Assembly: GCA_916048095.2 (NCBI GenBank)
Contig: OU696581.1
Coordinates: 3,073,445-3,137,444 of the forward strand
Source: Sacculina carcini
Taxonomy: Eukaryota; Arthropoda; Thecostraca; Sacculinidae
DNA length: 64,000 nucleotides
Direction: 5' to 3'
This document shows positions 4,816 through 60,432 of the stretch, piece by piece; position 1 is the stretch's first letter, and the number at the start of each line of letters is the position of its first letter. A program made the position numbers and the translations under genes. The notes under the pieces were generated by a model. That model ran no database searches, was not told the origin of the DNA, and worked only from the letters and a program-made list of their open reading frames with translations.

Positions 4816-5099
4816 TCACAGAGAGGCGAAAGGAGAGAGAGAGTGAGAGACGGGATCAAATGAAATGTCAAAAAGGTACAGGCGAAGCCGATGGCGGAAT
4901 GACCGAAATGAAGAGGCGCGGGTGATATGAGAGGGAAGAGAATTATACAAGCGAGGGGCGTAAAAGAAGAACGATTTAGAGGACCAGGAAGATTCATTAG
5001 ATGCACGAGGACAAGCGAGAGGAAGAGGGCGACGAGAGGAGTGTGAGTCAGTGGGAGACAAAAGATTAGCAAGATAAGAAGGTTGGTGAGGATCATTCA
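4816..5099 (-). pseudogene. C-terminal tail of the same L2 ORF2, out of frame
   Basis: The reading frame immediately downstream of the 737-codon ORF carries the conserved L2/CR1 C-terminus: NDPHQPSYL, then NESSWSSKSFFFYAPRLYNS and SFRSFRHRLRLYLF. It is joined to the upstream ORF by a frameshift at about 5097-5105. The same PRLYNS block is recognisable in the copies at 34.3 kb and 59.9 kb, which confirms it belongs to the element. Confidence 0.8.
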
Positions 5100-7310
5100 G
5101 AGCTTGTAAATGAGACAGCAAAGGCGAAAATGAATTCGTGGGATGATAGGAAGCCAGTGGAGTTGAAAAAGTAGGTGAGACGTGTGGCGAGAAAAGGTAG
5201 GATGAAAGACAAATCGACAAGATTGGTTGATCACACGCTGAAGGATTAAGAGATGAGAACGAGGAGCACTAAAGTAAAGCGAGTTGCAGTAGTCTAACCT
5301 GGGGAAAATGAGAGTATGAACAAGAGTGATGGCGGAATTTTTATCAAGATAGGGACGTATAGGGTAGAGAGAGCGCAGAATAAGACGACAAGTGCGGGCG
5401 ACAGAAACGATATTGTCAAAGCAGGAGAGCGAAGAGACAAAGATAGAGCCGAGATTGCGAACAGCAGTTGAGATAGGAAATGGGAGAAGAGGAGGTGAAA
5501 TACGAGGTGGATGGAGGACGATGAACTCAGACTTAGAAGTATTCAAGTACAACTGCCGAGAGGCGGCCCATGAGGAAATTTCAGAAAGTATATCAGAGAG
5601 AAAGGAGGGAGTATCAGGAGTTACAGGAATGAGGAATTGGATGTCATCGGCATAGATTTTGAAAGTAATGGAATGTTTTCGAAGAACAGGGCAAAGAGAA
5701 GACATATAAAGATTAAATAATAGTGGGCCAAGGACGGAACCTTGGGGAACACCAGATCGAAGAGGGAAGTGAGCAGAGGTAGAGGAATTGAAGTCAACTG
5801 AGTAAGTACGATCAGTGAGGTAAGATTTCAGAAGAGAAAGGGCGGAAGAAGATAGACCCAAACAGGAAAGATCACGAATAATAATAGGGTGACTAACAAG
5901 ATCAAAAGCCGAGGACAGATCAAGTAATACCAAGAGGACAGATTGACGGTAGGAGAAGTGTGAAAGGGTATCATTACACAAGGAAATAAGTACAGATTCA
6001 GTAGAGTGAGCAGAGCGGAAACCAGATTGACACGGGTCAAGGAATTTAGAGATGTAAGGAGAGAGTTGCAATGAAATAGCGGATTCAAGGAGTTTGGAGG
6101 GAAGACTGAGGAGAGATATAGGACGGTAATTGGTGAGAGCAGCGGGATCAAGAGTAGGTTTTTTTATAATGGGTCGAACAGTAGCATGTTTGTCTGGCAA
6201 GAAAACACCATGCAGAAAAGAAGAGTTGATAAGGTGGAGAAGGTAAGGCACAAGAGAAGGAAGAGACACAGAAATAGCTCGAAAATTAATTGAGTCCGAG
6301 GGAGAGTGGGACATCTTGATTGAAGACAAAAGGTGGAGAATGTCAGGAAGCGAGACAAAAGAAAATGAAGGAAAATTTTCGGAAGTGCGAGTATGACAGA
6401 GGGAGGATCGGAAAGGAGGGATATTCTTTAGAACAGAATCAATTTTTGCAGAGAAAAAAGACGCAAACTGAGAGGCTGTAAGATCACACGAGGTAGAAGG
6501 AGATCGGAGACCGCAGAGAGAATTGAGAGAGGACCAAAGAGATTTAGAAGAACGGGAAAGGGAAGCAAGTTTGGATTTGTAAAAATCTTGTTTGGCAATA
6601 TGTAATGCAGAAACATAAGACGACCGGGCAGAGCAAAGTAGTTCCCAATCCTGTGAAGATCGAGTTCTACTCCAGACAGTTTCGGCACGCCGCTGTGTAT
6701 GTTTAAGAGAATGAAGATGAGAGGAGAACCAAGGGGGAGAGGAAGTGAGAGGTTTAGACCGAGTGACCAAAGGAAACATAAAATCATTTATACCTGAGAG
6801 AACATCTGAAATGGCTGGAAAAATATCGCGGAGAGGGAGCCAGTAGAAGCGGTCGAGAGGAAGTAAGGAAGATAAAAGTGAAGTAAATTTAGTAGGATCA
6901 AACTGTTTGTAATTGCGATATGAGAATGGTGGAGGACAAGCAGCACGGGAGAAAGGAAGTGAAGAAATCAAGAGGCAATGGTCAGAAATATTTGGATCAG
7001 AAGGCAATGTGAAAACATCAGGAGGAGGACGGTCTGAGGAGATAGCGGGAGCGGGAGAGAGAAATAGGTCAAGAGAGTGACCAGATATGTGAGTAGGAGA
7101 AGAATTCAGAATTGATAGACCGAGTGCCTGAAGAAGAGAAATGAAGTTTTGACAGTAAGGATTATTGGATGGGGAGTCAACCCAGAAATTGAAATCCCCT
7201 ACGACGATGAAGTCGCTGGAGAAACGCGAGGAGACAGCATCGATGAGGTAAGAAAATTCGTTAAGGAAAAGAGGAGATGAGCCAGGGTGATTATGACGGT
7301 AGACTATCAA
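5097..7310 (-). CDS. L2-type LINE ORF2: endonuclease (partial) and reverse transcriptase
   Basis: Codes for the polyprotein that nicks target DNA and copies the element RNA. Residue 1 is only where the open frame starts (TTG, just after an in-frame TGA). The natural N-terminus is missing. Visible features: endonuclease motif GDFN at about 38-41; HISGHSLDLFLS at about 74-85; the SDH catalytic motif at about 109-111; reverse transcriptase with NYRPISLLS near 394, FRSAHSTES near 431, LDLSSAFD near 463, GVPQGSVLGPLLF near 520 and the catalytic YADD at 553-556. There are no stops over 737 codons, which argues for recent mobility. The frame ends at 5097 just after LCCLIYKL, where sister copies read on into DPHQPSYL. 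Here that continuation lies in another frame (4816-5099 entry), so there is a single frameshift. Confidence 0.88.
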   Translation of the reverse strand: MIVYRHNHPGSSPLFLNEFSYLIDAVSSRFSSDFIVVGDFNFWVDSPSNNPYCQNFISLLQALGLSILNSSPTHISGHSLDLFLSPAPAISSDRPPPDVFTLPSDPNISDHCLLISSLPFSRAACPPPFSYRNYKQFDPTKFTSLLSSLLPLDRFYWLPLRDIFPAISDVLSGINDFMFPLVTRSKPLTSSPPWFSSHLHSLKHTQRRAETVWSRTRSSQDWELLCSARSSYVSALHIAKQDFYKSKLASLSRSSKSLWSSLNSLCGLRSPSTSCDLTASQFASFFSAKIDSVLKNIPPFRSSLCHTRTSENFPSFSFVSLPDILHLLSSIKMSHSPSDSINFRAISVSLPSLVPYLLHLINSSFLHGVFLPDKHATVRPIIKKPTLDPAALTNYRPISLLSLPSKLLESAISLQLSPYISKFLDPCQSGFRSAHSTESVLISLCNDTLSHFSYRQSVLLVLLDLSSAFDLVSHPIIIRDLSCLGLSSSALSLLKSYLTDRTYSVDFNSSTSAHFPLRSGVPQGSVLGPLLFNLYMSSLCPVLRKHSITFKIYADDIQFLIPVTPDTPSFLSDILSEISSWAASRQLYLNTSKSEFIVLHPPRISPPLLPFPISTAVRNLGSIFVSSLSCFDNIVSVARTCRLILRSLYPIRPYLDKNSAITLVHTLIFPRLDYCNSLYFSAPRSHLLILQRVINQSCRFVFHPTFSRHTSHLLFQLHWLPIIPRIHFRLCCLIYKL

Positions 7311-7338
7311 GACTCACAAGTGTGTTCAGTTGAACATA

Positions 7339-15695: not shown

Positions 15696-16028
15696 TCTTT
15701 GCTCCGTTGTGTGAGAATCGAACGCATTTGCAGGAAGAATGTATAGGAGGTTAGAATGTGTGTCCACTGACTCGGAATCTGAATAAAAGCAGAAACATTT
15801 TCGCGGGTTTTCCAGGAATTTCGAGGAATTCAGTGACTTGAAGATCGGACAAAACGTGATGTCCGATGCTGATGTACCGCCTTGTCGGAAGCAATTGGTC
15901 CAAGGAGACTGCGTTTTTGTGATGCTTAAATAAGGAAAGGAAAAATATCAAAATATATCTTGGCGTAATCTTTAAAAATATCTTGGCGTTATCTTTTATT
16001 GTTCTCTTTCGTTATCCAGTAACATATC

Positions 16029-16600
16029 TGTGACCAGGACCTGTCGATTGATCCTACGCTCTCTGTATCAAATTCGTCCCTTTCTAGATCGTCCTTCTGC
16101 CATTAAGCTTATTGTCTCTCTTATTTTTTCTCGCATTAATTACTGCTGCTCTTTATATTTTCATGTTCCTCATTACTCTTTGCGTGTTCTTCAGCGTGTG
16201 ATGACTTCTTCATGTCGTTCTGTTTTTTCTCCAACTCCCTGTCGTCATACTTCCCAATTTCTGTTTGATTTTCGTTGGCTACCTATCATTCCTCGTATTC
16301 ATGTTCGTATCTGTTGTATTGTATATAAGTTTATTCGTGACCCCCTTCAACCTTCCTATTTTTCTGGTCTCCTCACTGTATCTTCTGCATATTCTCGCAA
16401 TTATCGCCCTCTTGTCTGCTCTCGTGCTCTCAACGAATCAACTTGGTCCGTTAATCGCTTTCTTTTTTGCTCCTCGTTTGTACAACTTCCTTCATGCTAC
16501 CATTGTGTATGCTCCTTCTTTTAGATCTTTCCGTTCTTCTCTTTTTCAACTTGTCTTTTGATCCTTCCTCACATACTCTCACTCCCTATGCTTGCCACGT
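16029..16600 (+). mobile_element. L2 LINE fragment: RT C-terminus and tail
   Basis: The translation starts abruptly at TRTCRLILRSLYQIRPFLD, equivalent to about residue 635 of the L2 ORF at 5097-7310. It continues through the C-terminal LPIIPRIH and NEST.S motifs, then shifts frame near the end. It is a 5'-truncated, decayed insertion on the plus strand. The sequence after 16600 is AT-rich, and the true 3' end cannot be placed. Confidence 0.85.
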
Positions 16601-26180: not shown

Positions 26181-29100
26181 ATGGCGCAGCCGACAGTTGA
26201 CACAGCAAGCTCGTCTCATCAGATGCAGCCGTCTCAAACGTCAGTATGGGCCGGGAGAGTCCCTATGCCCGAAAAACTGGACCTGAGTGTTGACCGGAGC
26301 GAGTCATTTTTCGTGTGGAAAGATCGTTGGGAAGATTATGTGCTATTGACCGGTCTTCAAAACCAACCCAGAAAAATGCAGGCCGCAGTACTTTGATCGT
26401 GCCTTAGCGATGAAACGCTGAGAACAGTGAGAAATTTCCAAATAGATGAAAACGACAAAGACAACGTCGACGTCATCGTTCGTATGCTGGCAGAGTATGC
26501 AAAAGGCCAGGTAAACGAAGTCATCGAACGGAAAAACTTCAACGGCCGCTCTCAGAAAATTGGTGAGTGCTTCGAAGATTTTTTGATCAGCCTCCGAGAG
26601 ATGAGCACCACTTGCAATTTCTGTGACCAATGTCGGGATTCCTTGATCCGCGATCGCATCGTCGTCGGTGTCAGAGACACAGCAAGAGTGGAAAAACTTT
26701 GCAGCGTGAAAAATCTAACGCTATCTACAGCCGTTGAGATATGCAGAGCTGAAGAGGCAGCCAACCGCGACACAGATTTGATCGAAAACAGTCGGGATAC
26801 TCACGTCAATAAAGTGCAACATAGGCTCCCCACTGTGACGCATGATAGGCGCACAGGAAGGGACACGAACGAGTGCACAAGATGCGGACGTCGCCACCAA
26901 GCGAGCGAAAAATGTCCAGCGCTCGGAAAACAATGCAAACGGTGCGGTAAATTTGGTCATTTCGAAATCAAGTGCCGTAGCGTGATTAGCACAAACAAAA
27001 AGACGCATCAGAAATGTACAGATAACGACCGTGTCTCTGCAGCAGTCGTTTCATACGTAACCACTGTAAAAGCACCAAAGGTGGACGTCGTGCATGGGGG
27101 TCAAATTCGTGTGTCGGCTCTTCCAGATACCGGAGCAGACATTACAGTCGCCGGCACTGACATCATGAAACATTTGAAGAATGTCAGATTGAAAGCCAGT
27201 ACTGAAAGCCCCATTGCAGCAGACGGAACCAAAATGCGTTCGATGGGTGTCTTTCAAACCACCATCGCCATTGGCAACGCATCGACTACGGTAGACATTA
27301 CTGTCGTAGAAGGCGTTCATGGACTCCTTCTCTCCTGGCATGTTTGTCGTGAGCTACGTTTGATTCCGGTAAATTACCCTGTACAAATGTCACCGTGTAT
27401 GCCATGTGAAACTGCACATCAGGTGAATCAAATGAAATCGCACTCGTATGACATATTCAGTGAATTTGCAGATGTGTTCAGCGATGAAATTATAGTTCTG
27501 ACTGGCGAGACATTCAAAATAAAATTGCGAGAGGACGCGATTCCGCATAGTGTCTCAGCACCACGCAGAGTACCACTTCCACTACAACCAGGACTGAAAG
27601 AGGAGATTCAGCAATTACAAGAACAAGGAATTATATCACCTGTAACTGAACCTACAGATTGGTGCTCACCAATTGTAGTCACGCCGAAAAAAATGGAGGT
27701 GTTCGTCTGTGTGTGGACCTCACCAAATTGAACAAATGTGTGAAACGTGAACTCTTTCAGTCCGGCACTCCCTCGGAATGCGTTGCATCAGAATGCGTTG
27801 CATTATTGCGTCAGAGGCAAAAATTTTCGCAGTATTTGATGCGAAAAAAGGTTATCATCAATGTCCGCTCGATGCTGACAGCCAAGCACTCACGACGTTT
27901 ATTACACCGAACGGCAGATACATGTTCAAGCGCGCTCCATATGGTATCTCTTCCATATCAGATCATTACAATCGGCGCATGGATGAATCACTGGAAGGAC
28001 TGCCGGGCATCCAGCGTCTTGTCGATGACGTCATAATATACGGCCGCACAAAGCAGGAGTTGCAGACGCGCGTGCGTAGTTTTTTGTTGAGATGTCGCGA
28101 GAAAAGTATCACACTGAATATTACTAAAGCGCAGTATATGCAAACACGGTGAAAGCTCGCCGGATTTGTGCTGAACGCAGAAGGGTACAGCATTGACCCA
28201 GACTTGTATGATGCCATTGCGCAATTTCCGGTTCCAACCGACATAACAGGTCTGAGATCGTTCTTCGGATTGTGCAATCAGATCGGATCATTTTCACCTG
28301 AGCTATCGAAACGGCTCACACCTCTGCGCGACTTATTGAGCGCAAAAAGAGTGTTTGTTTGGGAAAATCACCACACCGAGCGCTTCAAACGAGCTCGTGA
28401 AGCTCCATCATCACCGACAATACTCAAATATTTTCAGCAAGATGCTCCGACTTTCTTACGCACGGACGCCAGCCGACTGCACGGCTTGGGATTTGTCCTG
28501 CAGCAGAAACAAGATGACGGCAAATTATGCGTCATACAGTGTGGCTCCCGCTTCCTCACTGATGCGGAATCTAGATATGCTGCTATTGAGCTGGAGTTGT
28601 TGGCTATTGTTTGGGCGTTCAGAAAATGTCGCATGTTTCTCTCCGGTCTACAACATTTTGAAGTAATCACTGATCATCGTCCTTTGGTACCGATTTTAAA
28701 CTCAAAATCTATCGATGACCTAGCGAACCCTCGAATTCAGCGCTTGAGATTGGGGCTTGAAGAGCTTGCACCATTCTCGGCACAATGGACGCCAGGAAAA
28801 GATCACGCCGCAGCGGACGCGTTATCGCGTTTTCCTGTATCTTCCGTTGCTGCTCCCGGAGAAATGGGTGAAGAATTTTCTACCATAGCGACAATTTCGA
28901 CCGACGCAGCTATATCAGATGTTGAATGATTAAAATTGCAAGACATATCCGCTTCCGACACCGAGATGAAAATGCTGGGAAAAAACATAATGGAAGGATT
29001 TCCCACTCGCAAATGCGATGTGGACCCAATTATCAGTCGATATTGGCCGGTGCACGAGCATCTCTATATTGATGTTGACTTCATATTTTATGGAAGACGG

Positions 29101-30201
29101 CTCGTCATACCAGCGGGCATACGAAAAGAACTTCAACAACAACTTCACGCTGGTCATGCTGGTAAAGAAAAAACAAAACTACGTGCGCGGGATATTGCTT
29201 ATTGGCCCGGGATCGACGTAGATATTGACAACATCACAAAACATTGCAAAAAGTGTCAAGTGTACTTACCATCACAACCAAAAGAGACCATCCGCCATCA
29301 CGAGAAACCTACAAGACCGCTTGAACACGTCTCGGTCGATTTTGCCGAATACGGAAGCCATAAATTCGTGGTGCTGGTGGATCATCTATCTGGCTGGCAA
29401 TTTGGCAACGACCTTGGACAAGCATCCGTCACAAATAAACTTTTATCGACACTTCGCACAAATTTTTGCATGGTGGGAGTACCAGTGATATTGTATTCAG
29501 ACGGTGGACCTCAGTTCACATCTGGCGAGTTCCATCAATTCGTCAACAAGTGGAAAATCTCACATGTTTGCTCCTCACCACACTATCCGCAGTCTAATGG
29601 TAGGGCGGAGGCAGCAGTAAAATCAGCAAAAGCTCTTATAAAAAAGTGTTGGTGTGAAGACAAAAAACAATTGAACGAACATGATTGGTGCAGAGGGATA
29701 TTGCAGCAAAGAAACACACCTGGACCAGATGGAAGGTCACCTGCAGAAATACTCTATGGCCGTCCCGTTAGAGATTTCATCCCTGCACACCGACGCCAAT
29801 TTCAAGGCATGTGGCAGCAATCAAATGAGCAGATCGAAAAACGTGAACAGGACAGAATAATGAAGACAGACGAAAAGTACAACCAGAGTGCTCGAGATCT
29901 AAGTGACATCGCGACAGGAAGTCACGTAGCGATACAATGCCACATCACCAAGGAATGGAATCGGCATGGGATTGTGATCGAGCAGCTACCTCACCGACGC
30001 TACTTAATCAAGATGGCTAGCGGACGAGTCGTAGCTCGAAACCGGCGACATGTACGTCGCAGACACGGTCACGTCAATCAAGATTCAGCCGAAAATGGAC
30101 AACGTACTCACATTGCACCAACAAGTGATGAAGCGGAAAAGGAACAAGCAGAGGGTCAACTTCGGCGGTCGTCAAGAAACACCCGTCGTCCTCAGCGGTA
30201 A
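26181..30201 (+). pseudogene. Gypsy gag-pol polyprotein, inactivated
   Basis: From ATG 26181 the gag frame meets TGA at 26394-26396, then continues in frame. It has two Cys/His boxes, CTRCGRRHQASEKC and the canonical CCHC CKRCGKFGHFEIKC (near 26870-26975), then protease PDTGADIT near 27125. Reverse transcriptase starts near 27530. A frameshift falls in an A7 run at about 27685 and a second near 27800, then comes FDAKKGYHQ and the catalytic VDD at 28021-28029. In-frame TGA codons interrupt at 28150-28152 and 28927-28929. RNase H (RTDASRLHGLG, DHRPL) is followed by integrase with an H/C zinc domain (HAGHAGK, CKKCQ) and the DDE residues in HVSVDFAEYG, YSDGGPQF and SNGRAEA. The Mag-like assignment comes from RT style and is inference. 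Confidence 0.88.
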
Positions 30202-34945: not shown

Positions 34946-35044
34946 TATAAGGGCTGGACGGACGGAAGTTGTGCGGCTTGCTAATACATTATTATTCTGG
35001 TTTGATACTGATTTTAATTCAATACGTTACAAAACGTTACCTTG

Positions 35045-35378
35045 TGAACTCCGCGGTAATGTGGTTAGCACACCCGCCTCACAAGCGGTCCGAGGTTCGG
35101 AACCCGGCGGAGCAGAATTTCATTGGGCGAATTCTATAATCCCACAGCCCCTGTCCACCCAGCAGAAAATGATGGTACCAGATATCAGTCATATGTTGTG
35201 CCATGCATTCTGGGGAGGTGGCCCTCTCTAATACGCCTTACGTTCTTGTGGCGCCATAGCGTGGAGAGAGTCGGTTCTGCGGTGGCAGCCAGCTGCACGG
35301 GGCACACCTGTGTGTTCATAAGCTTCGGCTTCTTCCCGTGTAGCAGCTGCCACTTAGGCCTTTAAACTTTCACCTTAA
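35045..35378 (+). mobile_element. tRNA-Val-derived SINE, copy 2
   Basis: The head reads CTCCGCGGTAATGTGGTTAG then CCGCCTCACAAGCGG (CAC anticodon, valine) and GAGGTTCGGAACCCGG, a near-intact B box. Body and tail match the copy at 15362, including GGTACCAGATATCAGTCAT and TCATAAGCTTCGGCTTCTTC. It is better preserved in the promoter boxes than copy 1. Confidence 0.9.
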
Positions 35379-35680
35379 TCTTACATATTGTATACACCGC
35401 CACCGTTGAGTATAGATATCCCAGGACACAGCAAATCAATGTTGTCAAGCTTCATCTTCGTATTTTTTCACTGTATCGTTTTGTTTTTGTCGTTCGCTTA
35501 TGTAGCTTCTACATAAAATGGGCAGAATACATTTTCAAGGACAATTTTGTTCTTTATTGAGTTGTGAGATGGAAATAAAAACAATTTTCCACCGATCTAA
35601 GCAATGTCGGCATACAAGCAAGCATGGGCCCTGACAATTTCGCTATGGGACAAAGTCACTTCTTTCTGGACAATATGTTG

Positions 35681-35815
35681 CAGTGGCGGCGCCAGGGGGG
35701 TTTAGGGCTGAAGCCTCCTCCCAAAATGTGTTATGTCTGCCTGAACCAACCATAATATATCTTTACCATGAGCATTTCGAGTGTAGTTCATGCTCATGTC
35801 TCGTGGGGTGACAAG
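35681..35815 (+). mobile_element. Left-end fragment of CAGTGGCGGCGCCA hAT-like MITE
   Basis: Starts CAGTGGCGGCGCCAGGGGGG and keeps similarity to the complete copy at 13969 through a TTCGAGTGTA block. The right terminus is absent. Confidence 0.75.
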
Positions 35816-36586
35816 TCCAAATCCTCTTTTTCCCGGACATGTGCTCGTTTTGGAGGCTCCCCGTCCTGTCCGGGTTCTTTTTTGTAAAATGCTTCAATTG
35901 TCCGGGGTATTTATATAGATGTGCAGTGTCTTGTATCATGTGAGTTATAAATTAGCGATGTGTTGCGATTGTAAAGATGGCGCGCCAATTCAATTATGTG
36001 TTGTGACGTGTATCGTACGATTGTGAAATGGACCAATCAGAGGAAGGCACGCATGTCAGCAACGTACAATCGGGGTCAGGCTTAGAGATGCGACCTTAAA
36101 AACCGACGTTTTTTAAAAAAAAAAAACTTTTTTTAAAAAAAAACGCGACCAAAAAACACGTTCTTTTTGGGTTTTTTAAGAGTCATGCAAAGAATTCAAA
36201 TTATGGAAATGATATATTTGGGATGTTAAATGAATTATTTTTTTCAAAACATGGGTTATTCATGCTATTAGTGACCCTATCAAATTGAATTATCATTAAA
36301 TATGCACAATATAATTGTTAGAATGTGTATGAAAGCCCTAATATCATTGCTTGCACAGTACTGTGCGGCACTTCTATGTACAGTATATTCTTGCATTCAA
36401 TTATTGGGTTAATCATTGTGTAAGAAAGCAGGGTTTGAGAACCGTTTTTATGCTAAAATCTGAAACTGTTTTAAAAATAACAACAGGTTGCATAATTTTT
36501 TATTATTTTTTACATATTACTTTTTTCCTACCAGAAATGAACCACGTTGATTATAATAAATTTCATCATTTCATTCAGCAGATCAA

Positions 36587-38393
36587 TTATTTGCAATTCA
36601 ATAATTGCGGACCAGGCGTCGACAGAGCAGTTTCGTCATTTGAGATAGTTACACCAGTCGGCGATTGTGTGTTCCTGCTTTGACGTGCTCTCGCAGAGGC
36701 GGTGGTATCGGGTGCAGTTGGTTCACTTGAATCATTCTGCACGCAAGACGGCCCGTCGGACAGCACATAGCGAGGCTTAGTATGCTGGTACTGTGATGGT
36801 TGCGGTAAGTAAGCCGGTTTCAGGCGTTCTATGGACACCGCGTCAATTTCTCCAGTAGGTAACTCGATCTGAAACACATGTGATGTTCGTTGTACCACCC
36901 GAAATGGGCCACGATATGGAGCCTCCAGTGGCTGTCGAACTCTATCTACGCGAACCCACACGTGTGTACAGGTAGACAAGTCGCGTGGCACATACGTCGC
37001 TTTGGTGCGATGTGCGCTGCCAGCTGACAGTGAGTAGAAATCCATTTGGCGCATATGCCGCACCAGCTGCTGCACAAAGTCGTGGCGCTCTGCTGATGGT
37101 GACGCCGGATCTATGCTGACCCGCGGACATAAAAGTTGTGCACCTGTGATAGCTGTGGAGGGAGAGAAACCCGTCTCAGCCGGCAACATCCGAATACCCA
37201 GCAGTACAGCAGGTAAAGCGTCCATCCACTCCTGTCGTCGGGCGACGATGGCGGTTTTCAACACTCGGTGTACTCTCTCGATTAATCCATTTGACTGCGG
37301 GTGATATGAGGTCGTTCTCAATCGGTGAAAGCCGACAGTCCGCGCCAATGATGTCATGAGTGCAGCTTCGAATTGGGGGCCACGGTCTGTTATTATGTGC
37401 AGAGGCACACCAAACCGAGACACCCATACGGAAAAAAATGCACGTGCGACAGACTCGGCAGTGATACTCGTTAAAGGCGCTGCTTCAACCCAACGAGACG
37501 CTCTATCGATGCACGTAAGCAAGTACCTGTACGGTGAAGCAAATGTGTGGCCAGGTGCGGTACATGGCGGCAGCGGGCCGACATTGTCAACATGAACCAC
37601 CTCAAATCTGGAACACGGCATCGAAAATGGCGAGAGTGGTGCTTTCGTGTGGCGGTGTACCTTGGATTTTTGACAATCCAGGCAAGATTTCACCCACAAT
37701 TTCACATCTTTGTCAAGGCCGGGCCAAAAATACCTAGACTTCACAAGTCGCACACTGCCTTGCATGCCTGGATGTGAGAACTCATGGAGCTGTTTAAACA
37801 CAGTCAGTCGGCATTCCTTGGGCAGATACGGTCTCGGCTGCATCGACGAAGTTTCACATAATAGGTTAAGATTGTCATTCAATTGAACAATTTTTAACCT
37901 CGATTTCAATGACTGCACTTCATCGTCTACGCTCTGAGCCTTAGCTATACTGGGTAGATCACAAACATCGACACTCACACTGTTGATGTTGCGTGATAAG
38001 CAATCGGCAACGACATTGTCAGCACCTCGTACATGGTGTACATTTGAGACGTACTCGGTGATGAAGCTCCAGTATCTTTGCTGTCGATCAGATTTGGCTG
38101 ATTTTGTGCTTCTGAAAGCACTTTCCATGGGTTTGTGATCCGTAAATAATTCTACATGCTGGCCCTCGAGCAAGTGACGAAAGTGTTGAACTGCAAGATA
38201 AGCAGCCAACAATTCACGATCGTACGTGGAATATTTTCTCTGTGGTTCTGAAAGTTTTTTGGAAAAAAATGATATTGGTTTCGGATGGCCTTGCACTAGT
38301 TGATAGAGCGCAGCACCTGCAGCATATCCAGAACAGTCAGTCACGAGCTGGAACTCTATACTTTTCATGCACGGATGGACAAGTGTGCACGCT
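36587..38393 (-). pseudogene. CsRn1-like pol, second half: RNase H and integrase
   Basis: Continues the pol frame from 42983 once the young inserted element and one copy of its 4-bp target are ignored. The phase is preserved exactly. RNase H motifs: VTDCSGYAAGAALYQ, STYDRELLAAYLAV and FTDHKPM. Integrase zinc domain: HEFSHPG (HX3H) and CLDCQKSK (CX2C). Core residues are in VVHVDNVGPLP, IITDRGPQF and SNGLIERVHR, so the DDE triad is present. The frame ends at 36587 after a Ser/Thr-rich tail, without stops, so this half was intact when interrupted. Confidence 0.9.
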
Positions 38394-38397
38394 GACT
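38394..38397. repeat. 4-bp target duplication GACT (left copy)
   Basis: GACT at 38394-38397 matches 42983-42986, flanking the young LTR element. Confidence 0.85.
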
Positions 38398-38574
38398 TGT
38401 GGCATGTGTATAAGTGCTGTACCGTATGGCGTCATGTCAGAGAGTGTAGAGTGTGACAGGCTTATTCGCAGAACTCTGTTGCAACCCGATCCTGTGCACC
38501 TGCAGCCATGTATGTCAGTATTGTATGTATCAATAGCAGTCATGTGTGTGCAATAAACCAGACAACACGTTACA
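38398..38574 (+). repeat. 5' LTR of the young Gypsy element
   Basis: 177 bp, TGTGGCATGTG...CACGTTACA, with no difference from 42806-42982. It contains AATAAA within GCAATAAACCAG near its 3' end, a likely polyadenylation signal. Confidence 0.97.
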
Positions 38575-38586
38575 TGGTGTCAGAAG
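38575..38586 (+). promoter_or_regulatory. Primer-binding site, tRNA-Leu type
   Basis: TGGTGTCAGAAG directly follows the 5' LTR. It is complementary to the 3' end of leucine tRNAs ending CTTCTGACACCA. Confidence 0.8.
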
Positions 38587-38643
38587 TTTCGGACCTGCGT
38601 CCCATTATTATCGTTATTGTGTTGGTGGTATCGTGGAGTAACT

Positions 38644-41600
38644 ATGTCGTGCAGACAGCCGGATGAGCTAGATCTCAGCTCTCCAACGTTGGCGAATACG
38701 TGGCGCACCTGGAAAAGAGATTGGACGTATTATGCGTCCGCTAGGGAGTTATCCAGCAAGCCAATGGCGATGCAAATTGGCACTTTTTTTAATTGTGCCG
38801 GAAAAGCTGCACAAGAAGTGGCTTCTCATTTTTTGTGGTCGGAGGAGGGCGGCACTCTCGACGAATTGATTGCCGAGTTCGAGAATTACTGTGCGCCACA
38901 CAAGAACGTGATTATGGAGAGGTTCAAATTCTACAACCGTGCTCAACAGCCAGGGGAAAGCGTCACGGCGTTCGTCGCTGCGTTGCGAAATCTCAGTGCT
39001 AGCTGTGAGTTCACTAACACTGATGAAATGATTCGCGACAGAATATGCATCGGTGTATACGACAAATCAACGCAACAAACGCTGTTGAAAATCTCATCCC
39101 TGACGTTGGCCTCAGCTATTTCAACGGCGCTGACGGAGGAGGCGTCGCGTCAAGATCAACTGGTCATGACCAACGTGGATCCTCCAGTTTCAGGCGTGTG
39201 TGCTGCTACTTCGTCATCATCATCATCATCTGCAGCCGGTGGTCGTCAAACTGGTGGAAGTGAGTGCCGTTTTTGTATGCGCAGGCACGAAATGAGACGG
39301 TCCGAGTGTCCTGCGTGGAACCGCCTCTGCCGAGTCTGCGGACGCCGTCACCATTTTGCAGGCAGTATCGAGTGTCGCGCTGCACGTGCTGGCGAGAGCG
39401 GTGAGCGTCGCAGTGCACCCACCAGGGAAAGAGCGGTCGCTCAGAGCGATAGCCCTGCAACACGAGACAGTCGAGCGATGAGTCATAGACGTGACGTGCA
39501 GACACTGCAGGACAATAAGCTGCAAGATTCGCTGTCAGTGGGTATGGAGAGTAGCAGTGTCGGTAGTAAAGTATTCAAAACATTGATCACGCAGAACGGT
39601 AAACTGATCAAATTTCTCGTTGACTCAGGGTCTCAACTAAATGTAGTTTCTGTTGAGTCCTATAAACAATTTTCTGGTGATGTTGAAATGGTCAGTTTAA
39701 AACCGTCAAAAATGCTGCTTCGAATGTATAACGGTGCTCTCACATCCACTGTGGGTAAAATATCGGTCCCAGTTAAGAAACATGTAAATGATAATCTGCA
39801 AAATATGTTGTGTTATGTAGTGGACGCTGATGTTTTTCCGGTCCTCAGTCTGCAGACTTCGGTTAGCATGGGTATTATATCAGTGCTCGATTGTGACCCA
39901 CTTGATTACGTGCCCGGGCCCAGCATGGTACACAACTCGCAGAATAATTCACCGTCTGCAACCACACTGTCAGGTTTGACACAATCGCCTATGACAGCCG
40001 GAAATAAGCAAGACGTAATGCATAAATTCGCTGATGTTTTCGATGACAATACAGTTGGGCTGATTTGCCAGGACTTTGAAATTCAAGTAGACCCCACGGT
40101 TGTTCCTGTGGTTGAACCTCCTAGGCGTGTGCGTATACATGTGAGAGAAAAACTTCGAGATAAGCTGAATAGCCTCGAAAATCAAGGAATAATTGCCAAA
40201 GTGGTCGAGCCAACAGAATGGGTATCCAACATAGTTATTGTGCCCAAGGCTTCAGGCGATATCAGGTTGTGTCTTGATCCCAGATCTTTGAATAAGGCGA
40301 TTCGACGGGCTCATTACCCCACACCAACGGTAGATGAGGTTGCGTATCGACTTTCAAAGGCGAAAGTTTTCTCTCTCATTGATGTACATTCAGCGTTTTT
40401 ACATGTAGGATTGTCAGAACAATCTTCCAGGTTATGCTGTTTTCACACACCGTTTGGTAGGTACAGGTGGTGTCGTCTGCCTTATGGAACATCTTGCGCA
40501 CCCGAAATTTGGCAACGATTAATGCACGAAATGATCACTGACTTGGCAGGAGTAGAAGTTATAGCCGATGACTTTCTAGTCTCGGGAAAAGGGGACACAT
40601 ATGAGGAAGCAGTAGCAGACCACGATAAAAACCTAGTTGAGTTTCTCCAGACAGCCCGTTCGCGAAATTTGAAACTGAATACAGCGAAATTCAGATACCA
40701 ACTGAAGGAAGTAGAGTGGATGGGACATGTGTTTAATGATAGTGGCATGAGTCCGAGTCCAAGAAAGGTTGAAGCCGTTGCTAAATATCCGCAGCCTACC
40801 TGTTTGGCAGAGTTGAAGCGATTTTTGGGAATGGTGGCATACCTCTCGAGATATATTCCTGACGTGTCGTCGGTAGTTGCTCCTCTTAGGCAGCTTACGA
40901 AAGCGAAATATGAGTGGTATTGGAGTACGGAGTGTGAGAAGTCATTTGACAAGATAAAACATATTTTGATCAGAGCCCCGGTGCTCACGTATTACCGACC
41001 CGAGCTTCCCGCTACTGTACAATGTGATGCTTCGAGCACAGGACTAGGGGGAGTACTACTACAGGAGGGACGCCCCGTAATTTATTGCAGCAGATCACTG
41101 ACGTCAGCTGAGCGTGCGTATTCACAAATAGAAAAAGAATTGCTGGCAGTCAGTTTTACAATGAACCGACTGGATCAATTTGTCTATGGCAGATCTGTTT
41201 TGGTGCAAACAGATCACAAACCGTTAGTTGCAATTTAACAAAAAGCGTTGTGTGACGCCCCACTCCGGCTCCAAAGAATGTTGTTATCGCTGCAACGCTA
41301 TAATTTCACATTGGTGTATTGTCCAGGTGCAAGTGTTCCAGTGGCTGATGCTTTGAGTCGCAGCACTAACGCGAGTAATACTGTTCAGAGCGTGGCAAGT
41401 GTTGAAGTTGAGAATATAAACTTGAGTTCAGGGCTAGCTGTTTCTCCAGAACGTAAACAGGTCTATCAGGAGGCAACGAACAATGATCATTCGCTCCGAC
41501 AAGTAATTGAGTACACCAAATCGGGGTGGCCGTCTCGTAGATCCATGTTACCTGCTGATGTCGCTCAGTACTGGCCATTTCGTTTAGAAATGACGTCCCA

Positions 41601-42714
41601 GGACGGATTAGCGTTTAAGTATGGTAAGCTAGTGGTTCCCAAGTCGCTACGGGCAGGTGTCCTCTCCAGGCTTCATCGCGCTCATATTGGCTTGGCGTCA
41701 ATCATGAGGTATGCCAGAGAGAACGTGTTTTGGCCGGGCATGGCGTCTGAGGTTAGAAACATGATATTGAACTGCACTGTTTGCATGTCCTATAGACAGG
41801 AGCAACCATCTGAGCCCATGATGCCACACACTATAGCGGAACGTCCGTGGCAAAAATTAGCGGCAGATCTCTTTGAATTGAGCGGAAAGTGTTATCTTGT
41901 AACCGTTGATTATTTTAGTAATTATGTAGAAGTCGATCTCCTTCATCGTGTGACAACTGCAGCAGTTGTCTCGTGTTTAACTACTCAGTTTGCTCGTCAC
42001 GGGGTGCCAGAAGTATTGGTCACGGACAATGGTCCACAGTTTTCGTCCCATGAGTTCAAACAATTCATGCATCAAACAGACGTAGTACATATCACGTCAA
42101 GTCCGAGGTACCCCCAATCAAACGGGAAGGCTGAAAATGCTGTAAAAACGGTAAAACAACTCTTCCGTAAAGCCAGCGCTTCTCATGAAAATCCACTTTG
42201 GGCATTGATGATCTGGCGTAACACACCCAGTGAGGGTACGAAATACTCGCCAAGTCAGATACTGTTCGGGCGTAGATGCAGAACGTTACTACCGACACAT
42301 CGCGATTCTCTTTCACCTGCAACGGCAGTCGGTGTGCGAGAGAAGTTAGAAGAGCAGAAAAGGCGCCAACAGCAGGCGTACGACACTAGAGTGGGTCATC
42401 ATCCGCTGGTACCACTGTCTATCGGCTCAGCAATACGAATGAAATTACCGGGTTCAACAACATGGTCTTCCGGTATTTGCCTACGTTATTTAGGACACCG
42501 TTCATATGAAGTCCTTGTGAATGGAGTAAGATACAGGCGGAATCGCAGGCAGCTGATGCTCGACAGTCAAACTCAGCCAGATTTGTACAGTGGCGTCAGC
42601 TCTCCTGCTCAAGATATCAGTGAGCCGAAGCTGAGTCCGGTTCTTCAACGACCTGTACGAAGATCGTCGCGTCAGACCAGGCGTCCAGCGTACCTTGATG
42701 ATTATGTTTGTTAA
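38644..42714 (+). pseudogene. Young Gypsy gag-pol, one in-frame stop
   Basis: ATG 38644 opens a single frame to 42714 broken only by TAA at 41236-41238, between the RNase H and its C-terminal tether. Gag has two Cys/His boxes (near 39264-39372: CRFCMRRHEMRRSEC and CRVCGRRHHFAGSIEC). The retroviral-type protease has VDSGS near 39618. The RT catalytic motif is IADD at about 40561-40572. RNase H has QCDASSTGLGGVLL and TDHKPLVA. Integrase has an HHCC zinc domain ending CTVC, and DDE residues in AADLFEL, VTDNGPQF and SNGKAENAV. Gag and pol share one frame, as in several Mag-type elements. Whether the TAA is a mutation or a sequencing error cannot be told here. Other copies may supply function. Confidence 0.92.
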
Positions 42715-42789
42715 ACCAATATGTGTGTGTGTGATTCATTATTTATATCAACTTGTCACTTGAAATGTTTTAAAACATATATGTTTTTT

Positions 42790-42805
42790 TGGGGGGAAGA
42801 GGAGA
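42790..42805 (+). promoter_or_regulatory. Polypurine tract of the young Gypsy element
   Basis: GGGGGGAAGAGGAGA-type tract ending directly at the 3' LTR. Confidence 0.88.
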
Positions 42806-42982
42806 TGTGGCATGTGTATAAGTGCTGTACCGTATGGCGTCATGTCAGAGAGTGTAGAGTGTGACAGGCTTATTCGCAGAACTCTGTTGCAACCCGATCC
42901 TGTGCACCTGCAGCCATGTATGTCAGTATTGTATGTATCAATAGCAGTCATGTGTGTGCAATAAACCAGACAACACGTTACA
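42806..42982 (+). repeat. 3' LTR of the young Gypsy element
   Basis: Identical to 38398-38574. Followed by the right GACT target copy (42983-42986). Confidence 0.97.
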
Positions 42983-44505
42983 GACTGCAACGCTTGTTTA
43001 GTCTCCGTGAACGCAGCCTCTGCCTCCGAGTTCCATTCGAGACATTTGGATTTCGGTTGAAGTCGCAAGATCTCTGTGAGAGGAAACGTAATATGCGCAA
43101 ATCGCGGCACCATTCTACGAAAAAATCCTACCATGCCAAGTATGCGTCTCAGCTCAGCTGCGTCTTTTGGAAGAGGCAGGTCCATGATGGCTGACACACG
43201 TTCTTTGGGTGGTGACACACCTTCAGCTGACACATGGTGACCTAAAAATTGGACGTGTTTTTGGTAAAATGTACATTTTTCGGGAGCCAGTTTTAGTTTG
43301 TACCTGTCAAGTACTGCAAAAACGGCCTCCAAATGCTTCTTGTGGTCTTCTTCATTTGGAGAATACACCAGAACATAGTCTAAATATATAAATACACAAT
43401 TCAATTCCCGAAAAGCTGAGTCCATGAATCTTTGAAAGGTGGCTCCTGAATTTCTCAGTCCCATAGGTAAATACAAATATTCGAACATTCCGAAAGGTGT
43501 TGTGACTGCCGTCTTAGGAATGTCTTTTTCTTGTACTGGAATGTTATAATATGCACGAAGGAGATCAATTTTGCTAAATATTTGCATATCGTGCAATTTG
43601 GATGAAAGATTTTGAATGTGTGGAAGCGGATAGCGATCTGGTATTGTTTTTGTGTTTAGCGCACGATAGTCGTCTGTAATTCTCCACTCACCTGGTGACT
43701 TTTTCGGGACGAGGTGCAGAAGTGATGCCCAAGGTGAGCAAGACGGGCGCACGGTGCCATTTTTCAGTAGAACGTCGAATGCTTGTTTTGCGGCTTTCTC
43801 TCGTTCCGGAGCTAGACGCCGCGGTGAAGCGTACACTGGTGTGGCGCTGCCTGTTTCAATGCTGTGAACAACCAGCTTCGCTGCAGGGGCGTTTACAGGC
43901 GGTCCACTCGGTGCAGACGATATGACGGACTGATACCGTTGGATTATAGGGCGAATTTCTTTTGGAAAAGCGGTCAAGTCGTTGATGATGATGCCACATG
44001 AAAACGTTGATGACCTTTTGCACGACACGGCCAGCTCAGTGTTTGAATCACGCAGCTCGCACCTCCCGCAGTCTACTATCAAGCTGTGGTGCGCCAGGAA
44101 GTCCGTCCCCAGAAGAGGAGTGAGAATGTCGGCTACGACAAACGTCCAATTGAATGTTCGCCGCAGACCATGAATTTCGATCTGTAGTTGCAGTTGACCA
44201 TATACAGGAATTGTTTGACCGTTAGCGGCGGTAATTCGAACTGGCGATGGGTCTAGATGTCTGTCTGCCACCAGGCGTCTCGGCATGAGTGACACACCAG
44301 CACCTGTGTCTACGATGAATGTCACTGGGCGAAGAAATATTCGCGTGGCGACTTGTACTAGTGGCAGATGAGTGGTCGCTTTCACGTTCATCTGCCTACT
44401 CAGTTTTCCGACAAAGATGCTTGGCGCGCCGGTGACACAGTGCGAGATGACGGCTCTAACTTGATCCCAGGTCTTTTTGTAGGCCATTTGCACCATACTT
44501 TGCAT
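42983..44505 (-). pseudogene. CsRn1-like pol, first half: protease and reverse transcriptase
   Basis: Protease signature FIVDTGAGVSLMP, then VADILTPLLGTDFL as in CsRn1-type elements. RT contains PSCSPWASLLHLVPKK, WRITDDYRALN, FSKIDLLRAYYNI and TPFGMFEYLYLPMGL. The catalytic box reads YLDY instead of YLDD: codon 43375-43377 is TAT, so the second catalytic aspartate is lost. Downstream LGHHVSAEGV and LRRILGMVGFFRRMVP are normal. The frame then runs into the inserted young element at 42982. No stop occurs before that point. Confidence 0.9.
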
Positions 44506-45223
44506 GTGCGAGCCTCATTTCCAAAGTAAATGTGTGCTCTACACACTTGTGGTCGTTGAGCATCGAAAAATGGACGCAGCTCCCTCGGTATCAAGTAATG
44601 GCTGGTACTGGTTTGATTTCGTTGTGAGGTGTACCCTCTGCTAGAGCGAGCTACTGTCGTCCCCATACTTTCCGATTGTGCCGCAAAACACGGTTCTGTC
44701 TGTATCAGCGGCACCAATTCGTCTGCTATTGGGCCCATGTGTTCGATTTTCAAGTCCTGTTGCGCCGCTAAGGCTGCAGCGACGGCCGTAGGCAAAGATT
44801 TCAAGAACTTATACTTCACTATGTCTTCACCTGCACCAGCTTTTTGCGCTATCCTCTGAAGATCGCCAGCGCCTCAGACGGTCGACCTGGTAGTGGCATT
44901 CTTGACATCAGTTCTTCGATCACTTCAGCTTTGGTTTTATCGAATTTGTTCTGCAAAGCCTGTTTGAGCTCCGAATACTTGTGACTAGCCAAAACTTGTG
45001 GACTGAGTCGGGCGGCCGCATCTGGAGGCAGTGCAGCCATCGCATGAAAAAAACGTTTTTCTTCCGATGTGATTCTGGCTAGATGAAATTGTGCCTCCAG
45101 GACAGCACTCCATCCAGCCACAGACTCTGGCATGAACGGAGGTGGTTTTACTCCCACATGGGCAGAAACAAACGGACTCGAAATCTGCTGCATTGAATCT
45201 GTGAGCTCACCTGAGTTCTGCAT
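44400..45223 (-). pseudogene. CsRn1-like gag, frameshifted
   Basis: ATG at 45223 gives MQNSGELTDSMQQ, then the capsid-like PPPFMPESVAGWSAVLEAQF and LKQALQNKF regions typical of CsRn1 gag. The frame is lost near 44870 and resumes in another frame from about 44870 to 44400, which contains the CHCC zinc box (about 44515-44565). Gag and pol are in different frames, overlapping near 44400-44505, consistent with an ancestral frameshift arrangement. Confidence 0.82.
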
Positions 45224-45286
45224 GCTGATAGAGTTGACGACTGAAATGAGTACAAGTTCAAATAGGTGTCGCAAAAGATGAAGCAA

Positions 45287-45301
45287 TCACTCGGGGCACC
45301 A
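45287..45301 (-). promoter_or_regulatory. Primer-binding site, tRNA-Trp-like
   Basis: The minus strand reads TGGTGCCCCGAGTGA, two bases after the LTR end. It resembles the complement of the tRNA-Trp 3' end (TGGTGACCCCGACGTGA) with two deletions. Confidence 0.6.
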
Positions 45302-45303
45302 AA

Positions 45304-45590
45304 TGTGGTGAACGGTCCACATACAGAAATCAACTGGTCTTTATATTGACAGCGCTTCAGCTCTCGGTAGAATCAGCCTCAAACGATAGGATAACACGAA
45401 CTTATATACCGATACACACCAGCACACATACTCATTCAGATATACACCGTCAACACACCCTCGACAACCTGAGGCACACACACACGCATACACACACACA
45501 GGGACGCGCATATACAGACACGAACATGACATACTGAACCATTGAGACACGCTCATTCACACACAGTTCACACAAACACACTCTAGCAAG

Positions 45591-45595
<5 letters not shown>
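45304..45595 (-). repeat. 5' LTR of the CsRn1-like element
   Basis: On the minus strand it begins TGTAACTTGCTAGAG at 45595 and ends TTCACCACA at 45304. The upstream boundary is set by the TGTAAC start and the adjoining CA tract. No second LTR was found, so the boundary is not confirmed by a pair. Confidence 0.6.

Positions 45596-45683
<88 letters not shown>
45594..45683. repeat. (CA)n microsatellite
   Basis: A CA tract of about 90 bp abutting the LTR of the CsRn1-like element. The element may have inserted at its edge. Confidence 0.96.
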
Positions 45684-45687
<4 letters not shown>

Positions 45688-46369
45688 AACATACGGCTCA
45701 CATTGTGTTCTACAGAACCACCACATCCACATAATTAAAACCATCTTTAAAAACATGGGTTTTCTCAATGAAAAAAACCTAAACCACCGGACCCGGATGC
45801 ACTTTCAAACAGTCTCCTGATGTATTTATTGATAAGTATTTTTGTTTCTTATACTATTATCAAATTATCCTTGAAATAAGACACGTAAAGATGTACAAAA
45901 CATCAATTGAACTCATTTCTATGTACTAAAATCTAACATCCGATGACAATTGGGGCTAATTCTAAAAAAAACAAAAAACAAAAATGTTTTTTTTGCAAAA
46001 AACGCAAAAAAACGTTTTTTGCATCACTAGTCAGGCTATAGAGTAAAATCAGTCTATGTGTAGGTCTCGTTCAGTCCACTTGTGTATGTGTGTTATATTA
46101 ATATACGTGTGGGTCAAGACACATCTCAGATTCGCTCGCCGTCGCTTCGACACTACAAGCTGGAGTAGTAAGATGCAATATGTTCCAACTGCGAGAGCAT
46201 AATGGTTTTATCCTTGGCTAAAAAACGACAATATAAATTCGTGACATTGGTCTATGAAATGGCGATTTTTCTAAATATAAGCTTAATTTTTCAATAAGAT
46301 TATAAATTTTTCGCGCGCACACAAAAGTGTCCACATTCTAGAGATTGGGAACATGGTCATTCTTTATTC

Positions 46370-46431
46370 CTCAGCTACCCCCCCATCCCACCCCCAGTCT
46401 CCCCACCGGAAAAATCTTTGCGACGCCATTG
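46370..46431. mobile_element. Right-end fragment of CAGTGGCGGCGCCA-type MITE
   Basis: Ends with CCGGAAAAATCTTTGCGACG then CCATTG. This corresponds to the C-rich tract and terminal sequence of the complete copy ending at 14260, with several substitutions. The left part was not found. Confidence 0.55.
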
Positions 46432-46458
46432 GTATGCAGGGCTATTAGTGTCTGTCAC

Positions 46459-46812
46459 CATGGGCGTATATTTGTGTCGAGGCTCGTGGGGATGACATCC
46501 ATCATGTATTAGTATTCAAAGTTGACTCAGTCGGCCAATTGCGTTGGTATCCTCAACTATTTTCAGCCTATTCAATCACAACGCACCCACCCCAATGAAG
46601 GGTGCATTGCGTAATATAATTCTTCACATATTTATAACTTCTTGCATTTTTGGTCTTTTGTCATTTGCCTTCTATGCTGATTTTGATGATGATATACCCA
46701 ATGAACTGAACTCAGCAGAATTATCGGGGGGTATAATTGCATATTCATACCCCCCAGCCCATTTGTCGGGGGATATATATACCCCCCATACCCCCCAGGA
46801 TTCACGTCCATC
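46459..46812. mobile_element. hAT-like MITE, CATSGGCGTA family, copy 2
   Basis: Inverse orientation relative to 10601-10948. It starts CATGGGCGTATATTTGTG, ends with GGATTCACGTCCATC, and keeps the GGGGGGTATAATTGCATATT block. A perfect 8-bp duplication TCTGTCAC flanks it (46451-46458 and 46813-46820), confirming hAT-type insertion. Confidence 0.92.
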
Positions 46813-46956
46813 TCTGTCACACTGATGAAACATTGACTGTATATTGATATTTACAGAAAATAGTATGAGCAATTTGTTTCCGTTCGATTTTTCCGTTAGG
46901 TATTGTCATTTATGCGTGCATATGATTTGTATTCGTCTCATTTTGACTGAGCATTA

Positions 46957-59552: not shown

Positions 59553-60432
59553 TGTTATAGCGCACCGAAGGGCTCGGGGGCGAAACTATTATAAACAGAA
59601 TTGGCAAAACGGAATGCAAATATTAGACCAGATATAAAAAAGTCAACTACAAATATAAAATAATATACAATACATATAGAGACAAAATACGGACAAAACA
59701 CACAAAACAGACGGACATGACGGACAAGACAACACGACTGAAACATAATGACAACACAACTCGAGACAATATAATCATAGCGTAGATAATGTAAACATGC
59801 AAATGAGGGAAGGAATACAAGTAAGAACAGGTTAAAGTAACAGGTTATAGTGATGCAAAAGTTGTGAGAGTGTGAGAGACTGGGTCAAAAGAGAGGTTAA
59901 AAGATGTTTGGAGAGCTTAGAGCAGAAATAATTGTAGGAAAGAGAAGAAGTAATGTGAGCTGGGATGGAGTTGTAAAGGCGAGGGGCGGAAAAAGAACGA
60001 TTTGGAGGACCAGGGAGACTCATTTACAGCATAAGGGCAGACAAGGGGAAGAGGAATTCGGGAAGGAGTGAGGCAAGGAGTGAGGAGAATGCGGAGATAG
60101 GATGGCTGATGAGGATCGTGGAGAAGCTTATAGATAAGACAACACAAGCGAAAGTGAATACGTGGAACAATACGGACCCAGTGAAATTGAAAAAGAAATT
60201 GAGAAGTGTGATGACAAGGAACAGGATGAAGGACAAAACGACAGGATTGATTAAGAACACGTTCTAGGATTTTAGTAGAACGTAGGGGATCATTGATGTA
60301 CAAATATTCACAATAATCGAGTCTAGAGAATATACGAGAGTGAATAAGTTTGGTTGCGGAAGGTCTGTCGAGATATGAGCGTATAAGGTAAGATAGAGGG
60401 ATCTCAAGATATGACCAATTTAAATCAATCAA
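59553..60432 (-). mobile_element. L2 LINE 3' fragment
   Basis: Minus-strand translation from 60432 aligns with the end of the L2 ORF2: RSYLDRPSATKLIHSRIFSR, RIHFRLCCLIYKLLHDPHQP and NESPWSSKSFFF. It then shifts frame into SAPRLYNSIPAHIT (59832-60023). Here the LCCLIYKL-LHDPHQPSYL junction is intact, showing what was lost at 5097. The tail is TGCGCTATAACAAATATA at 59553. Confidence 0.88.

What the first reader, a model, noticed from the sequence alone, without database searches (positions are those of the whole stretch)
36083..46029. Three-level transposon nest: hAT-like > CsRn1-like Gypsy > young Mag-like Gypsy
Each layer has its own boundary evidence: 8-bp GTCAGGCT around the outside, one LTR and tRNA-Trp-like primer site for the middle, and 4-bp GACT plus identical LTRs for the inside. 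Removing the inner element and one GACT restores the middle element's pol phase exactly, which gives the order of insertion.
Basis: seen in the sequence. Interest (0 to 1): 0.8.

Follow-up and report, generated by a model that had tools for sequence, protein, structure and literature searches.

The report
Five transposons nested in one site

Summary
Outside to inside: (1) an old hAT-like TIR element, 35681-46431; (2) a solo LTR, 35922-46157; (3) a non-autonomous hAT element, 36083-46029, TSD GTCAGGCT; (4) a CsRn1-type Gypsy element on the minus strand, 36598-45725; (5) a Mag-like Gypsy element, 38398-42982, with identical 177-bp LTRs. Uninterrupted counterparts of layers 1-4 exist in the same genome: joined hAT flanks run across in 39 of 40 scored places, joined solo-LTR flanks in 35 of 40, and the CsRn1-type pol is unbroken in 11 of 11 other fetched loci, with a 4-bp overlap. 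Missed: all 13 other hAT loci read carry 663-747 bp that this copy lacks, and the CsRn1-type element has lost its last 747-881 bp with the 3' LTR; one deletion of about 1.4-1.6 kb explains the single LTR. Oddity: the inner TSD is 4 bp, while 12 of 15 other two-LTR copies have exact 5-bp TSDs. The kind is well known; the depth is unusual: in D. melanogaster 6 of 294 nests reached path length three (PMC1794594); here it is four.

The parts
35673..35680 (.). left 8-bp TSD of layer 1 (ATATGTTG); right copy 46432-46439 (GTATGCAG), 5 of 8 alike
35681..46431 (.). layer 1: old hAT-like TIR element; own sequence 35681-35921 and 46158-46431 (515 bp)
   Evidence: joined flanks of the solo LTR match across in 35 of 40 scored places; ends CAGTGGCGGCGCC / CAATGGCGTCGC; pooled TSD agreement 27 of 40 positions in the 5 copies with both ends found
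35922..46157 (+). layer 2: solo LTR of a Gypsy-type family; own sequence 35922-36082 and 46038-46157 (281 bp); TSD AGATG (35917-35921) / AGCTG (46158-46162)
   Evidence: joined hAT flanks match across in 39 of 40 scored places; LTR ends and 5-bp TSDs of other copies
36083..46029 (+). layer 3: non-autonomous hAT element; retained parts 36083-36596 and 45726-46029; TSD GTCAGGCT at 36075-36082 and 46030-46037
36596..36598 (.). deletion junction: hAT up to 36596, 1-nt filler at 36597, CsRn1-type element from 36598; lost: 663-747 bp of hAT plus 747-881 bp of the element including its 3' LTR
36598..45725 (-). layer 4: CsRn1-type Gypsy element, 3'-truncated; own sequence 36598-38397 and 42983-45725
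45304..45725 (-). 5' LTR of layer 4, starting TGTGGTGG, containing a (CA)n stretch
45284..45301 (-). PBS-like stretch of layer 4, resembling the complement of a tRNA-Trp 3' end with two single-base gaps
   Evidence: comparison by eye
44403..44870 (-). part of layer 4 gag with the CHCC motif (CX2HX9CX3C)
   Evidence: motif read by eye; one search gave no Pfam family for this piece
38394..38397 (.). left GACT of layer 5; right copy 42983-42986
38398..42982 (+). layer 5: Mag-like Gypsy element, 4585 bp, LTRs 38398-38574 and 42806-42982 identical; gag-pol frame split by one in-frame stop at 41236-41238

Best explanation
A five-level transposon nest made by five independent insertions and one later deletion. 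An old hAT-like TIR element was entered by a Gypsy-type LTR element, of which only a solo LTR is left, most likely through recombination between its two LTRs. A non-autonomous hAT element moved into that LTR by cut and paste and duplicated 8 bp. A CsRn1-type Gypsy element integrated into the hAT, and a Mag-like Gypsy element integrated into its pol gene at the near edge of the RNase H domain. At some time after the fourth insertion, before or after the fifth, end joining without microhomology removed about 1.4-1.6 kb: the CsRn1-type 3' LTR with some internal sequence, and part of the hAT. Shown: the boundaries, the duplications, the uninterrupted counterparts and the missing segments. Inferred: the recombination that made the solo LTR, that the loss was one event, and that the hAT was moved by a transposase supplied by another element.
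For: Layer 3 in 2: joined flanks match across in 39 of 40 scored places, with flank overlap of exactly 8 bp in the six loci read (L053-L058). Layer 2 in 1: joined flanks match across in 35 of 40 scored places, one of them by only 7 bases; 5-bp TSDs in the LTR family. Layer 4 in 3: hAT arms of the window are contiguous family sequence in 13 of 13 distinct other loci, with 663-747 bp between them that the window lacks; 10 of 11 fetched CsRn1-type 3' ends continue 747-881 bp past the window's break through an LTR. Layer 5 in 4: 11 of 11 other loci uninterrupted with 4-bp overlap. Similarity rises inward in the same order: layer 1 arms about 64-77% to relatives, layer 2 81-93%, layer 3 42 of 815 positions off the family majority, layer 4 LTR 3-7 mismatches in 285-287 aligned bases against 11 copies, layer 5 LTRs identical.
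Against: The window's TSD of layer 1 agrees at only 5 of 8 positions and that of layer 2 at 4 of 5; both rest mainly on the family comparison. No empty site was found for layer 1 itself (0 of 38 other rows span). The CsRn1-type element's own TSD cannot be seen, because one side is deleted. The inner TSD is 4 bp in a family where 12 of 15 other copies show 5. Assembly error cannot be excluded without reads.
Confidence: 0.9

Rival explanations
1. The CsRn1-type element entered a hAT copy that already lacked its middle part, and lost its own 3' LTR in a separate event.
For: Not excluded by the sequence; the order of events inside layers 3 and 4 is read from one junction only.
Against: None of the 13 distinct other hAT loci read has such a gap, and the hAT gap and the element's truncation share one junction at 36596/36598, so one deletion suffices.
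Confidence: 0.06
2. The locus is partly an assembly artefact: copies of multi-copy repeats were joined wrongly.
For: All five layers are multi-copy families, and no reads were available.
Against: Boundaries coincide with the true ends of the elements and are flanked by matching duplications; wrong joins would not place TSDs there.
Confidence: 0.03
3. The 8-bp repeat around the hAT is chance and the outer ends are unrelated.
For: GTCAGGCT twice in 64 kb is not unusual: 30 of 100 shuffles reach two.
Against: 39 other places match the left end and 40 other places the right end; in the 13 distinct loci read, both ends lie in one element of about 1.5-1.6 kb with its own duplications; and the joined flanks exist without the insert.
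Confidence: 0.005

Closest known systems
TE nests of Drosophila melanogaster (PMC1794594; passages read)
   Same: Chains of TEs inserted into TEs; order follows from containment; LTR elements prominent as inner and outer parts.
   Different: There, 263 of 294 nests had path length one, 25 two and 6 three; this one has path length four and includes a deletion across two layers.
CsRn1 clade of Ty3/Gypsy (PMC2582038 and PMC3630058; passages read)
   Same: Layer 4: CHCC gag motif of the printed spacing, 4-bp TSDs in 4 of 4 copies with both ends checked, tRNA-Trp-like PBS.
   Different: PBS matches the recalled tRNA-Trp only with two single-base gaps; this copy is 3'-truncated and interrupted. No tree was made.
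Mag clade of Ty3/Gypsy (PMC2577118 and PMC8220671; passages read)
   Same: Layer 5: RT and integrase of Ty3/Gypsy type, two Cys/His motifs at the end of gag.
   Different: The spacing of the motifs, read by eye, is not the plain CX2CX4HX4C, and Pfam gave nothing for the gag piece. No tree was made.
hAT elements with the nTnnnnAn target preference, such as Hermes (PMC10368747; passages read)
   Same: Layer 3: 8-bp TSDs; T at position 2 in 7 of 13 and A at position 7 in 8 of 13; short imperfect TIRs.
   Different: No transposase: longest stop-to-stop frame 72-127 aa among the family copies. The autonomous partner was not found; that search did not complete.

Membership tests
hAT (non-autonomous), layer 3 | 8-bp target-site duplication | tested here: met
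   Exact in the window and in 10 of 13 distinct other loci; 7 of 8 in 2; not readable in 1.
hAT (non-autonomous), layer 3 | short terminal inverted repeats | tested here: met
   TAGAGATGC left, TAGTGATGC right, 8 of 9 alike.
hAT (non-autonomous), layer 3 | mobilised by a related hAT transposase | not tested
   The family search did not complete.
CsRn1 clade, layer 4 | CHCC gag motif CX2HX9CX3C | tested here: met
   Read by eye in the frame 44400-44873, minus strand; spacing as printed in PMC2582038.
CsRn1 clade, layer 4 | 4-bp TSD | tested here: met
   4 of 4 other copies with both ends checked (C30, C26, C15, C7); not visible in the window copy because of the deletion.
CsRn1 clade, layer 4 | PBS complementary to tRNA-Trp | tested here: inconclusive
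   TGGTGCCCCGAGTGATT fits the complement of the tRNA-Trp 3' end only with two single-base gaps (by eye). The genome has 21 places that match the 3' part of a recalled tRNA-Trp at 91-100%.
CsRn1 clade, layer 4 | placement in an RT/IN tree | not tested
   No named reference sequences at hand; only Pfam RVT_1, RNase H and rve were found.
Mag clade, layer 5 | two CCHC arrays in gag | tested here: inconclusive
   Two Cys/His motifs seen by eye with irregular spacing; no Pfam family for the piece 38662-39480.
Mag clade, layer 5 | placement in an RT/IN tree | not tested
   Only Pfam RVT_1 and rve were found.
Solo LTR, layer 2 | single LTR flanked directly by a TSD and by unrelated host sequence | tested here: met
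   AGATG/AGCTG, 4 of 5; flanks are layer 1 sequence on both sides.
hAT-like TIR element, layer 1 | 8-bp TSD | tested here: met
   27 of 40 positions agree over the 5 copies with both ends found (window, L087, L122, L124, L125), p about 2e-8 at 0.25 per position and 1e-6 at 0.3; L123 and L126 dropped because no right end was found. In the window alone 5 of 8.

The most novel reading that the evidence does not exclude
The inner Mag-like integrase made a true 4-bp staggered cut here although its family makes 5-bp duplications (12 of 15 other two-LTR copies exact at 5, one 4 of 5, two with none, none exact at 4), so that one integrase can vary its stagger. The alternative is a 5-bp cut with one base lost at the 3' junction.
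Probability: 0.3. Interest if true: 0.3.

Novelty: new member of a known kind. Interest (0 to 1): 0.25.

Why it matters
It is a fully ordered record of five transposition events at one site, with counterparts in the same genome for the outer steps, so five TE families can be ranked by age without a molecular clock. It is deeper than any nest counted in the D. melanogaster survey PMC1794594. It does not change what is known of how nests form.

Tried and rejected
Sixth layer: the joined flanks of the outermost element gave the window's own two halves and, in the other 38 of 40 rows, matches to the right-hand part alone, an abundant neighbouring repeat; 0 of 38 span the site. Only candidates scored by the tool were seen.

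A chance 8-bp repeat, an assembly artefact and a gap in the hAT older than the insertion were weighed; see the rivals.

LTR pairs of four other middle-element copies differ by 1 of 287, 1 of 287, 0 of 285 and 5 of 294.

Script faults: the C18 figures '135 versus window' are a strand artefact and are not used. In one search my pattern found the inner empty site in 10 of 11 loci; L061 was not matched by the pattern, though one search shows it continuous.

Autonomous hAT partner: not answered, so mobilisation in trans is inference.

Papers: passages were read in PMC2582038, PMC3630058, PMC2672092, PMC10368747, PMC2577118, PMC8220671 and PMC1794594; all others were seen only in listings.

Full report
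What was checked. GTCAGGCT occurs only at 36075 and 46030; by itself that is weak (30 of 100 shuffles have two or more). The strength lies in the family. Besides the window, 39 scored places match the left end and 40 the right end; both lists are capped. In 13 distinct loci read in full, 12 keep the left end and all keep the right end; 10 have an exact 8-bp duplication, 2 match 7 of 8, and 1 has lost its left end (a fourteenth row, L012, is the same place as L007).

The hAT layer. Family copies are 1.51-1.60 kb and carry no long frame (72-127 aa stop to stop): a non-autonomous element. TIRs are TAGAGATGC and TAGTGATGC. The 13 readable duplications, window included, have G at position 1 in 11, T at 2 in 7 and A at 7 in 8, which leans to the nTnnnnAn preference printed for Hermes (PMC10368747).

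In 13 of 13 distinct loci the two hAT arms of the window are separated by 663-747 bp that the window copy lacks. On the other side of the same junction the CsRn1-type element stops at 36598, while 10 of 11 other fetched copies run on for 747-881 bp through an LTR to their end; the eleventh, L034, shows no 3' LTR in the stretch fetched. Base 36597 fits neither side, and I saw no microhomology. One deletion of about 1.4-1.6 kb, healed by end joining, explains both losses. It is later than the fourth insertion; whether it came before or after the fifth is open.

The CsRn1-type layer. The LTR is 45304-45725, minus strand. Besides the window, 25 scored places match the 3' internal 400 bp at 95-99% over at least 397 bases. 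Four copies with both ends checked all have 4-bp duplications, and gag carries CX2HX9CX3C (by eye), as printed for CsRn1-like elements in PMC2582038. The PBS resembles the complement of tRNA-Trp with two single-base gaps (by eye). Gag lies in two frames that change near 44849-44873, which looks like a frameshift; other copies were not compared there. Pfam finds RVT_1, RT_RNaseH and rve in pieces; the inner element sits at the near edge of the RNase H domain.

The inner layer. It is 4585 bp long with LTRs identical over 177 bp. LTRs identical to them also occur on C24 and C18, and four other LTR pairs (C24, C18, C3, C7) show no difference within the pair, so the family moved recently. One in-frame stop at 41236-41238 splits an otherwise open gag-pol frame. 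The site is uninterrupted in 11 of 11 other fetched loci with a 4-bp overlap; some of these loci (L064/L066, L069/L070) look like duplicates of one another. The family's duplication is 5 bp: of 15 other two-LTR copies 12 are exact at 5, one is 4 of 5, two show none, and none is exact at 4. The window's 4 bp is thus either a 4-bp cut or a 5-bp cut with one base lost.

Two more layers outside. The hAT flanks, joined at one GTCAGGCT, match across the junction in 39 of 40 scored places; the remaining row is the window's own right flank. In the six loci first read, both flanks overlap by exactly 8 bp. That repeat is an LTR with ends TGTAGTGTC and GACACTACA and 5-bp duplications. Paired copies about 2.1 kb apart are short elements; one (L071) has a single long frame of 632 aa with gag-like zinc knuckles and a protease-like DTGA and no RT that I could see (by eye, no profile search). 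The window has one LTR with AGATG/AGCTG at its ends: a solo LTR. Its flanks, joined, match across in 35 of 40 scored places at 74-80% identity, one of them by only 7 bases; four rows stop before the junction, and one is the window's own left flank. This outermost repeat ends in CAGTGGCGGCGCC and CAATGGCGTCGC. In the 5 copies with both ends found the 8 flanking bases agree at 27 of 40 positions (7, 6, 5, 5 and 4 of 8; p about 2e-8 at 0.25 per position, 1e-6 at 0.3); two copies without a right end were dropped. No further layer was found.

Order and ages. Containment gives the order, and similarity to relatives agrees: arms of layer 1 about 64-77% (short cores up to 86%), layer 2 81-93%, layer 3 42 of 815 positions off the family majority, where 12 other copies range from 1.2 to 4.3% in the left and 0.7 to 4.7% in the right part, layer 4 LTR 3-7 mismatches in 285-287 aligned bases against 11 copies, layer 5 LTRs identical.

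Known or new. Nesting is long known and tools exist to unravel it (REANNOTATE, PMC2672092). In D. melanogaster 263 of 294 nests had path length one, 25 two and 6 three (PMC1794594); here it is four. I do not claim that deeper animal nests are unreported: searches were my only searches on this.

Noticed in passing
38394-38397 and 42983-42986: The inner element has a 4-bp TSD, whereas 12 of 15 other two-LTR copies of its family have exact 5-bp TSDs.
   Followed up: partly
L071 950-3314 (also L072, L073, L074): The solo LTR's family has short copies of about 2.1 kb; in L071 the inside is one 632-aa frame with gag-like and protease-like motifs and no RT seen: perhaps a gag-protease-only LTR element.
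   Followed up: partly
G000:C9:6880015-7176168 (L053-L058): Ten of the 40 scored places of the LTR lie in one orientation within 0.3 Mb of contig C9, at 89-90% identity to the window: probably a large repeated block.
   Followed up: no
G000:C2:9377482 and 9445489; C37:3137242 and 3794446: Pairs of middle-element copies lie at constant offsets (68,007 and 657,204 bases), which suggests segmental duplication.
   Followed up: no
26397-30201: Another Gypsy-type gag-pol in several frames on the plus strand.
   Followed up: no
5097-7313 minus; also 15976-16524 and 59917-60432: A long non-LTR-type reverse transcriptase frame and two shorter frames that look like pieces of related elements (by eye).
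   Followed up: no
46444-46817 and 35041-35376: Two dispersed repeats beside the nest, one on each side; they are neighbours, not a sixth layer.
   Followed up: partly
41236-41238: A single in-frame stop splits the inner element's gag-pol frame although its LTRs are identical.
   Followed up: no
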